Below the pieces are notes generated by a model that was given only the letters and a program-made list of their open reading frames with translations, was not told the origin of the DNA and ran no database searches. From contig CP126191.1 in NCBI GenBank assembly GCA_030272155.1, positions 10,438,501-10,502,500 of the forward strand: a stretch of DNA of 64,000 bases, written 5' to 3'. The stretch is from Tetradesmus obliquus. Taxonomy: Eukaryota > Chlorophyta > Chlorophyceae > Sphaeropleales > Scenedesmaceae. A program made the position numbers and the translations under genes. Within the stretch, counting starts at the first letter, position 1, and the number at the start of each line of letters is the position of its first letter. Of the stretch, positions 258 to 53,017 are shown in pieces.

Positions 258-3200
258 CTTGCCCACGGCCTTGGCTGCGCCGGTGCTGCTGGGGATGATG
301 TTGCCGTTGGCGCCGCGGCCGCCGCGCCAGTCCTTCTTGCTGGGACCGTCCACGGTCTTCTGCGTGGCGGTGGTGGCGTGCACGGTGGTCATCAGGCCCT
401 CCTTGATGCCAAACTTGTCGTTGACCACCTGCACATGATGACGAAATGACAAAATGGCAGCGGGCACAGACAGAAGCACAGGTGTGGGCGAGACAAAGCG
501 AGTGTGTGACAGCGAACTGGCGCGGCAGCTGCAAGTCAACTACCACACACAGAGCATGCATGTACATGCACCGCCTTGAGGAAGTGCAGTGTGCGGGGTT
601 CCCTCACACACCCTGACCAGTGGTGCCAGGCAGTTGGTGGTGCAGCTTGCGTTGGAGACCATACTGTGATACACAGAAGCACACACACAACCTAGCAACA
701 AGTCAGCCCATTGCCGCCTTTCCCACCTAAGCCAGAGGCGCCGGGCAGTTGATGGTGCAGCTTGCGTTGGAGACCACGCTATGGGCCCTTCCAACCACAC
801 ATGTTGTACAGCACACAGCGCCACATAAGCAGCCTGGGAACAAGCCAGAACAATGATCAGCTCTTTTACCTTGGCCAGGGGCGCCAGGCAGTTGGTGGTG
901 CAACTTGCGTTGGAGACCACGCTGTCCTTCTTGGGGTCGTACTTGCCCTCGTTCACGCCCATCACAAACATGGGCGCGTCGGCAGAGGGCGCGGAGATGA
1001 TGACCTTCTTGGCGCCAGCCTTGATGTGCGCCTGGCACTGCGGGGACGGAGCGGGGAGAAAGGAGGGTGCAGCGGGCGGGAGGATGCAGCGCGGGCGGCA
1101 GGTGATGTTTTCAGCAAGCCATCCCACAGTTCAAGCAACCAGGAGCAGAACACAGTGTTGCTGCAAAGACAACGGCAATCAACTGTGCTTCCTTAGACAC
1201 CAGCTTCCAATGGACATGCAAAAGGCTACTGGCCTAGGCAGACCAGCACAGCATGCACCAAGCGACTGCAGCTGCGACTGCAGCATGCACTCCAGCTGGC
1301 ACACCCATCCATCCAGCAGCGCGCACCTTGTCGATGGTGGTGAACACGCCCGTGGACTCCACCACGTAGTCAGCGCCCACCTGACCCCAGGGGATCTGAG
1401 TGGGGTCCCTGCAGGGCGGCACAGGCAGCAGCAGCAGCAGCAGCAGTTAGGCGCAGCAACAGCAACCAAGACAAATGTGCGCCCAGACCAGAGTGATGTT
1501 ACTGCGCCTCTGCACGTGACGCGCACGCTCATGGCGCTGGCGTCTGCATGCGGAGCAGCTGCATCACCGGAAATGCAAGGCTAGCGCTGCGGCTGCTGCA
1601 TCCCACCAAAGACATTGCTCATAAGATCAAAGCAGCCGCCCCCAATACCATCACAACAGGCAAGATGCAGTGCGAATATATCCAGATGCACAGCTCTGCG
1701 CAAGCCCAACCCAACTGCAAAACGAAATGAATCCGCCACTCACATCATGGCGAAGGTCTTGACCAAGTTGCCGTTGATGGTGAGCCCCTCCTTGTCGCCC
1801 TCCACGCTGCCCTCGTAGCGGCCGTGCACGGAGTCGTACTTGAACATGTAGGCCTGCAGGGGGAAGGTTGCAGGCGGCCAGCACCAGCATGAGCTCATGG
1901 AGGCATTACATTCATACAGCTCAGCATGAGCTCACGCAGGCATTACATGCAGCAGCTTGCCTGGTGAAGCGATGCTCATCAACAGCGTGATACAAACAAT
2001 GCGCTGGTGGGGTTGTGGCCCTGCATACACAGGATGCTAGTCGGGCATGATGTTGAAGCACAGCAACAGCGCCAGAATGCTGCACTCACCATGTACTCGC
2101 CCTGGCCAAGCAATGTAGCACGCATGCAAACAACAGCAGAAGCAGCAGCAACAGCAGTGTTAGTCATAGTAACAGCAGCTACGAGGCCAGCAAGTAGGGA
2201 GCAACTCGATGACCATGAGCACACCAGCAAGCTGGACAAGCCAAGGAACCACGCGCCTAGCTGCCGCGACATGTGCTGCGCAAATGCATGCATGCATGCG
2301 CTCGCCTGCCCTGCGCAACTGCTTGCTGCTGCTGCTCGAACATGCGCAAACACACCCTGCACCATATTACGAAAGACACAATGCGCACCGGCACCTGTGC
2401 CGCTATACTGCGGGGACATCTGCACAGTGCTTGTTTCAGGCAGCATGCGGTCCCTTTTGCATGCAGCAGCGGCTCACCTCGATGAAGGGGTCGTTGATTG
2501 CCACCACCCTCACATCCTTGCGGTCCAGTGTGGCACGCAGCACCAGGCGGCCGATGCGGCCAAAGCCTGCAGGACAGCAGCAGGAGGATTTAGGGTACAC
2601 AGCAGTACAGCAGACAGGCAGGCAGGCAGGGGACAGGTCAGCAGTAGGGACTCGAAATAGTAGGAGGAGGTGCGAGGGCGAGTATGAGTATACTGCAGCA
2701 GGCAAAAGCACGGTGGCGTTAGAGGGCTGACGATAGGAGGTGAGGCGGGTAATGCCTGCAGCAGGGAGGAATCTAGCAGCAGCGACTGCTACCCGAGCCG
2801 CTGCAGCTGATAAAAATCGTTTCAAACTATTGTTGACGACCCACAGCGGCCGGATCAAAGGCTAGACGATTGCTGTAGTTGTTTCGCGGCAGCATGTGCG
2901 TGCGACAGCACCGAAACACCCAGGACGCTGCAAGTTCCTTACCACGCCTAGTCTGCAGCAGGCCAAACAACACAGCTATACAGTTGAATGCACTTGCCAC
3001 TGCTGAGAGCTGCTGACGCCACGGCGTCAGAGTGGCCAGCTAACGGCAGTGGGCCAACACCGCCATGCAAAGGCTGACAGGCTAACAACAAAAACTAAAC
3101 ATCATATACGTGCGTGCTGGAGCTCTAAGACCACTGCTGCATGTCGGATCACTGTCTCTCACGTCAGGATCACGGAGCAGCTAGTGCAAGGCCACGCTTG

Positions 3201-53017: not shown

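What the first reader, a model, noticed from the sequence alone, without database searches (positions are those of the whole stretch)
258..53017. Recurrent 'exon-edge echoes': splice-junction segments repeated inside introns of at least six genes
Seen directly: in GAPDH, the Kir-like channel, the large secreted protein, BCAT, ADC synthase and (inside a palindrome) the TBL-like gene, the terminal 30-100 bp of an exon plus its splice site occurs one to five extra times in the adjoining intron. Copies of exon 3' ends lie downstream and copies of exon 5' starts lie upstream. They are never whole exons or exon middles. Most keep GT or AG. Tandem duplication across a splice junction explains the geometry, and tandem duplication is a known proposed source of new introns. 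Such a high density in one 64-kb window suggests an active, junction-biased process with effects on splice-site choice.
Basis: partly seen in the sequence, partly recalled or inferred. Interest (0 to 1): 0.88.

Follow-up and report, generated by a model that had tools for sequence, protein, structure and literature searches.

The report
Splice junctions duplicated inside algal introns
In this green-alga-like genome about one sampled splice junction in ten has one or more decayed copies of itself inside the neighbouring intron, left by small tandem duplications of about 120 bases that cross exon edges, which lengthens introns and leaves possible decoy splice sites.

Summary
Using gene models from a gene finder trained on the sequence itself, 66 of 657 exon edges recur in the adjoining intron, against 1 of 574 exon middles or far ends, 0 of 657 reverse complements and 0 of 1810 edge-versus-other-gene comparisons; it holds in samples of contigs C2 and C11. 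Of 107 matches 104 are anchored at a splice junction, 79 exactly. Nearest copies lie about 119 bp away; 24 of 67 junctions carry two to five. The intron beside the copies is often duplicated too, more decayed: these are tandem duplications across junctions. The edges-only geometry can follow from tolerance alone. Junction-spanning duplications outnumber intron-only ones 2.4- to 8.3-fold per opportunity, but a random-placement null shows little excess (28 seen, 22.1 expected). No neutral simulation run fitted all decay measures together. Existing introns grew (median 286 against 439 bp); intron gain is not what is seen. Splicing effects are untested; 64 of 67 echo sites would break the reading frame if used.

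The parts
872..925 (-). GAPDH exon 3' end (source edge of donor-side echoes; intron begins at 869)
   Evidence: gene model; protein aligns without a gap across the junction to a solved GAPDH
731..780 (-). GAPDH donor echo 1, 92% identical, offset 143
614..667 (-). GAPDH donor echo 2, 89% identical, offset 258
10521..10597 (+). Kir-like channel exon 3' end (source)
   Evidence: IRK domains
10768..10844 (+). Kir donor echo, 95% identical, offset 247; searches with its spacer and with the echo region matched only this place in the genome
11059..11099 (+). Kir acceptor echo of exon start 11168-11208, 83%, offset 109
11415..11447 (+). Kir donor echo of exon end 11284-11316, offset 131
11562..11594 (+). 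Kir donor echo, second copy, offset 278
11675..11720 (+). Kir donor echo, third copy, offset 405
12640..12685 (+). Kir acceptor echo (farther), offset 232 from exon start 12872
12754..12800 (+). Kir acceptor echo (nearer), 98%, offset 118 from exon start 12872
18482..18934 (-). Large secreted protein: array of five donor-edge echoes of the exon edge near 18981-19041, spacing about 96-108
   Evidence: outside my gene models, so not in the counts
21871..21900 (-). Large secreted protein: donor echo of exon end 21966-21995, offset 95
37036..37068 (-). TBL-like gene: donor echo of exon end 37149-37180, offset 113
   Evidence: PC-Esterase domain
41102..41134 (-). BCAT donor echo of exon end 41201-41233, 97%, offset 99
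41003..41035 (-). BCAT donor echo, second copy, offset 198
42018..42093 (-). BCAT acceptor echo of exon start 41884-41966, 92%, offset 134
42161..42242 (-). BCAT acceptor echo, second copy, 93%, offset 276
43250..43300 (-). BCAT donor echo of exon end 43381-43431, 98%, offset 131
43099..43163 (-). BCAT donor echo, second copy, 80%, offset 282
48575..48600 (+). ADC synthase donor echo of exon end 48434-48459, offset 141; the repeat spans the 141-bp unit at 81%
49744..49776 (+). ADC synthase acceptor echo of exon start 49879-49911, offset 135
51810..51855 (+). ADC synthase donor echo 1 of exon end 51700-51745, offset 110; GT lost
   Evidence: protein aligns across the junction
51958..51989 (+). 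ADC synthase donor echo 2, 94%, offset 244; GT lost

Best explanation
Small tandem duplications of about 120 bp keep arising in this genome. Those whose unit crosses a splice junction place a second copy of the exon edge and its splice site inside the intron. Splicing goes on using the original outer site, so the protein is unchanged and the duplication can spread; the intron grows by one unit. The event can repeat at the same junction, and the nearest copy tends to be the youngest. The intron half then decays in both copies, while the exon half stays recognisable because the real exon is constrained and perhaps because the echo itself changes more slowly than neutral. Shown: edge anchoring, direct orientation, duplication of the intron flank in the better-preserved cases, longer introns, recurrence, clustering by gene. 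Inferred: that the outer site is the one spliced, that tolerance shapes the geometry, and the molecular cause (fill-in repair of staggered breaks or template slippage).
For: 66 of 657 edges against 1 of 574 middles or far ends and 0 of 1810 cross comparisons; Fisher p no worse than 4e-10 without C11, without the window, or with gene scores over 150 only. 104 of 107 matches lie within 25 bp of the junction, 79 reach it exactly. Intron flanks homologous above null: 20 of 56 over the 99th percentile, 25 of 56 over the 95th, rank test p 6e-16. Nearest offsets cluster near 119 (sd 16 for the 58 of 67 under 170 bp) and others near twice that. Introns without echo (n 305) median 286 bp, with echo (n 57) 439, with echo minus echo offsets 232. 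In 24 multi-echo junctions, of 1098 shared sites 44 are private to the nearest echo and 82 to the second. GAPDH paralogue: intron at the same place, about 235-250 bp, no echo (scores 13 and 16). In printed solved-structure alignments, 10 of 13 echo-bearing junction positions that they cover (GAPDH, ADC synthase, UBA1, aspartokinase, homoserine dehydrogenase) have no gap within five residues; the other 3 have one nearby or at the junction (positions).
Against: 31 of 56 nearest echoes show no intron-flank homology above the 95th percentile of the null, some with 96-98% identical exon parts. Echo-bearing introns minus their echoes are shorter than echo-free ones (232 against 286, p 7e-4), not equal as simple addition predicts. 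No neutral run fits all decay measures; echoes set to about 0.3 of the neutral rate fit most of them, for reasons not known. A direct estimate of that slowing, 0.48, has an interval that includes 1 (0.31-1.12), and the third-position excess lies in AT-to-GC changes, so codon preference may explain part of it. All junctions are predicted, with no RNA evidence.
Confidence: 0.78

Rival explanations
1. Junction-targeted duplication: something at splice junctions (chromatin, R-loops, paired nicks in transcribed DNA) makes about 120-bp duplications arise there preferentially, beyond what tolerance allows.
For: Per opportunity, better-preserved junction-spanning duplications exceed intron-only ones: 15 against 3 (8.3-fold, p 9e-5) or 15 against 5 (5.0-fold, p 7e-4), tallied by hand under criteria that are not identical for the two classes (test). 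In an intron-intron scan, 24 introns with echo against 12 without (3.3-fold, p 4e-4), or 17 against 12 (2.4-fold, p 0.017). The unit is narrow in length (sd 16) and lies with about 40-49 bp in the exon and 66-74 bp in the intron at both kinds of junction (medians).
Against: Randomly placing spans of the same length gives 22.1 exon+intron events against 28 observed. Multi-echo introns inflate the intron-intron scan. Counts are small, and intron-only events that have decayed are missed.
Confidence: 0.3
2. Echoes are retained as regulatory decoys: second splice sites whose use destroys the message and so tunes expression.
For: Echoes appear to change more slowly than in neutral simulation; 47 of 67 echo sites are canonical and reach the 10th percentile of real site scores, and 64 of 67 would shift the frame or bring a stop if used; in-phase offsets are scarce, 13 of 67, p 0.014.
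Against: Splice dinucleotides are no better kept than the rest of the echo (position profile); 3 in-frame open cases is about what chance gives (rough reckoning, no call); no RNA; slow decay could have other causes.
Confidence: 0.18
3. Gene conversion keeps copying the exon edge into the intron echo.
For: Would explain near-identical exon parts beside unrelated introns and few indels.
Against: Mismatches are not clustered as conversion tracts would make them (z 0.01, se 0.14, n 55), and third-position mismatches (172) exceed those expected from echo change alone (71), which conversion would level; codon preference weakens this second point.
Confidence: 0.1
4. Assembly artefact.
For: Tandem repeats are error-prone in assembly.
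Against: Copies differ by about 10% on average with codon-patterned differences, occur on three contigs and spare exon middles.
Confidence: 0.02

Closest known systems
Tandem duplication across an intron-exon boundary in a potato RNA-dependent RNA polymerase gene (PMC4974935, passages seen)
   Same: A direct tandem duplication crosses the intron 3' side and exon 5' side and carries branch site, acceptor and exon start; the same gene also has an 83-bp tandem duplication inside an intron.
   Different: There a new intron was created; here existing introns are longer, copies are decayed and mostly out of frame, and about 10% of sampled junctions are affected.
[quoted passage not shown] as described in PMC4974935 and PMC2891723, passages seen)
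   Same: Direct duplication of coding sequence bearing splice signals, with the protein unchanged.
   Different: That model makes an intron of one unit from exon sequence; here the copies lie inside an existing intron and the unit contains intron.
Introner elements (PMC9860276, start of abstract in the listing only; details recalled)
   Same: Mass change of intron content in one genome.
   Different: Introners are copies inserted into many genes; here copies are local, and none was found shared between genes in the comparisons made.
Small tandem duplications from fill-in synthesis at staggered breaks (PMC8355091, passages seen)
   Same: A shown route to small direct tandem duplications that needs no pre-existing repeat.
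   Different: No link to splice junctions or to a length near 120 bp is described in the passages I saw.

Membership tests
Tandem duplication crossing an exon-intron boundary | Direct copies near the source, containing both exon and intron sequence | tested here: met
   0 of 657 edges matched in reverse complement; intron flanks homologous in 20 of 56 above the null 99th percentile, 31 of 56 not above the 95th
Tandem duplication crossing an exon-intron boundary | Absent from a relative with the same intron | tested here: inconclusive
   One case only: GAPDH paralogue on C6 (about 70% identical exons) has the intron without a detectable echo
Rogers AGGT intron gain | New intron one unit long, bounded by GT of copy 1 and AG of copy 2 | tested here: not met
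   Echoes lie inside longer introns; in the catalogue one case (C11 21208/21337, offset 134, intron 129) comes close
Introner elements | Related sequences dispersed over introns of many genes | tested here: not met
   0 of 1810 sampled edge-versus-other-gene comparisons; Kir spacer and echo region matched only their own place; other spacers were not searched
Whole-exon tandem duplication (mutually exclusive exons) | The whole exon with both splice sites is copied | tested here: not met
   Exon far ends 0 of 287, middles 1 of 287, in exons of 180 bp or more
Regulated decoy or poison splice sites | Echo site is used in some transcripts and lowers expression | not testable with these tools
   No RNA data

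The most novel reading that the evidence does not exclude
A junction-targeted mutational process in this algal lineage repeatedly duplicates about 120-bp segments around splice sites, is a main engine of intron growth, and leaves decoy splice sites that are kept for a time by selection because their use gives unproductive, degradable messages.
Probability: 0.18. Interest if true: 0.88.

Novelty: new variant of a known kind. Interest (0 to 1): 0.62.

Why it matters
How introns grow, and how spliceosomes tolerate strong duplicate sites, are open questions often argued from single cases. Here about a tenth of sampled junctions carry duplicates of many apparent ages with a narrow spacing, so rates, tolerance, decay and splice-site choice could be measured within one genome.

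Tried and rejected
Gene conversion as the reason for slow decay: no mismatch clustering. Translation of echoes: 15 of 17 gaps are not multiples of three, against it; in-frame stops are fewer than expected (2 against 6.7), for it. A GCAG motif at the exon end of the unit: 10 of 33 donor and 4 of 25 acceptor cases against backgrounds 0.30 and 0.27, no enrichment. A mobile element: spacer and echo region of the Kir case matched only their own place. My first gene-finder settings ran away into tiny exons and were replaced by stricter ones. Dropped before counting: 9 predicted exons in 6 genes that were themselves echo-like. Weaknesses left in: 4 of 39 gene models score under 30, and one window model (21095-46976) fuses several genes, so a few of the 362 introns are really spacers. 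Literature: ten searches, of which I saw the listed titles and abstract starts, showed no report of widespread splice-junction echoes; only the open-licence library was searched and some searches had far more hits than were listed, so this is weak evidence of absence.

Full report
What was examined. The window lies at C1:10438501-10502500 of a 104.66-Mb genome in 17 contigs. Size, a GC of 52-62% per 2 kb of the window and intron-rich genes fit the published Tetradesmus obliquus figures (108 Mb, 57% GC, mean intron 462 bp, 7.8 introns per gene; table passage of PMC5966456); naming the organism is inference. For replication I took 200 kb of C2 and 50 kb of C11. No annotation was at hand, so I wrote a gene finder, started from hand-picked window exons and trained on the sequence itself; from the accepted run come 39 multi-exon models, and after removing 9 predicted exons that looked like echoes, 362 introns. 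One window model (21095-46976) fuses several genes, and 4 of the 39 score under 30.

Is it there? Self-comparison finds 204 direct and 1 inverted local repeats of 40 bits or more in the three regions (self-overlapping palindromes not counted); two shuffled stretches gave one of 40 bits and none of 45. Testing 60-bp exon pieces against the adjoining intron, 36 of 326 donor edges and 30 of 331 acceptor edges reach the threshold, against 1 of 287 exon middles, 0 of 287 far ends, 0 of 657 reverse complements and 0 of 1810 comparisons with introns of other genes. By region: window 13 of 112, C2 25 of 458, C11 28 of 87. The result stands without C11, without the window, or with gene scores over 150 only (Fisher p from 7e-18 to 4e-10). 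With edges of up to 150 bp the catalogue has 107 matches; 104 lie within 25 bp of the junction and 79 reach it exactly, at 67 junctions. Echoes are uneven among genes (chi-square 86.7; 2000 shuffles: mean 34.5, maximum 68.8).

What made them? Beside the nearest echoes I aligned the intron after the real site with the intron after the echo: 20 of 56 exceed the 99th and 25 of 56 the 95th percentile of the null, and the scores run from full identity down to nothing. The unit duplicated therefore included intron in the better-preserved cases, as a tandem duplication requires; 31 of 56 do not show it. The nearest echo lies at a median of 119 bp (sd 16) in the 58 of 67 junctions where it is under 170 bp; others fall near twice that. 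Of 67 junctions, 43 carry one echo, 16 two, 5 three, 1 four and 2 five. In the 24 with two or more, 44 aligned sites are private to the nearest echo and 82 to the next, so the nearest tends to be younger. Introns with echoes are longer (median 439 against 286 bp); with the echo offsets taken off they are 232 bp, somewhat shorter than echo-free introns (p 7e-4). The GAPDH paralogue on C6 has an intron at the same place, about 235-250 bp, without a detectable echo.

Why only edges? A duplication within an exon usually changes the protein; one within an intron leaves no exon match; one across a junction leaves an exon edge plus splice site in the intron with the outer junction intact. This tolerance argument, an inference, needs no targeting. 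Whether there is targeting as well is less sure. Full-unit duplications number 28 exon+intron, 7 intron, 8 intergenic, 3 exon and 1 exon+intergenic; random placement of the same spans gives 22.1, 9.3, 11.2, 2.8 and 1.6, a small excess. Counting opportunity for the unit rather than for the doubled span, junctions are ahead 5.0- to 8.3-fold in hand-tallied recent events, or 2.4- to 3.3-fold using an intron-intron scan, which multi-echo introns inflate.

How do they age? Over 3218 aligned bases of 67 nearest echoes, mismatch is 0.062, 0.059 and 0.162 at codon positions 1, 2 and 3, with 17 gaps. The ratio of position 3 to 1 and 2 is 2.66 (2.07-3.39), and fourfold sites differ at 0.215. I simulated neutral echoes with the same detection step. 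In one search runs with young ages keep intron flanks too similar (0.68-0.80 of cases above the mark, observed 0.45); runs with older ages decay enough (0.21-0.56) but then have too many position-1/2 mismatches (0.092-0.113, observed 0.061). All six neutral runs have ratios of 1.5-1.7, too many gaps per mismatch (0.125-0.283, observed 0.056) and too few intact GT sites (0.45-0.64, observed GT or AG 0.82). Letting echoes change at about 0.3 of the neutral rate fits most of these, GT excepted. A direct estimate is 0.48 with a wide interval (0.31-1.12); GC-to-AT changes are equally frequent in exon third positions and echoes, so the excess lies in AT-to-GC changes and codon preference may share in it; in the 17 best-preserved cases echo positions 1 and 2 change at 0.044 against 0.079 per intron lineage. 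I read this as suggestive slowing, cause unknown.

Consequences. 29 of 37 donor and 26 of 30 acceptor nearest echoes are canonical; 24 and 23 reach the 10th percentile of real site scores; 64 of 67 would cause a frameshift or stop if used. Printed solved-structure alignments of GAPDH, ADC synthase, UBA1, aspartokinase and homoserine dehydrogenase cover 13 echo-bearing junction positions; 10 have no gap within five residues, 3 (one in UBA1, two in homoserine dehydrogenase) have a small one nearby or at the junction, and one further UBA1 position fell in a part not printed. So at the 10 the outer junctions look like the protein-making ones.

Comparison with what is known. A potato gene shows the same kind of boundary-crossing duplication as a single case with a new intron (PMC4974935, passages); a Drosophila study reports intron gain through duplicated proto-splice sites (PMC2891723, passages); fill-in repair of staggered ends is a shown route to small tandem duplications in mouse and human cells (PMC8355091, passages). 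What appears new here is density, recurrence, narrow spacing and the outcome: longer introns with decaying extra splice sites rather than new introns.

Noticed in passing
35060-35160: Large near-perfect palindrome (86 aligned bases to its own reverse complement at 91%) in an intron of the TBL-like gene.
   Followed up: partly
C2:2047636-2048073 (in L013): A 215-bp tandem duplication at 99% identity overlapping the end of a predicted gene, the most alike duplication found on C2.
   Followed up: no
40261-40326: Perfect 12-base repeat, 5.5 copies, in a BCAT intron.
   Followed up: no
59091-59364: 23-base minisatellite of about 12 copies whose consensus holds CTTGCAG, an acceptor-like core.
   Followed up: no
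42442-42735: 36-base repeat array that my gene finder read as coding sequence in BCAT; probably intronic.
   Followed up: no
L029-L033 (C11:2500001-2550000): Echo density about six-fold that of C2 (28 of 87 edges against 25 of 458); a raffinose-synthase-like gene has echoes at 16 of 42 junctions.
   Followed up: partly
9798-14105: An inward-rectifier potassium channel gene (IRK and IRK_C domains) in an alga-like genome.
   Followed up: no
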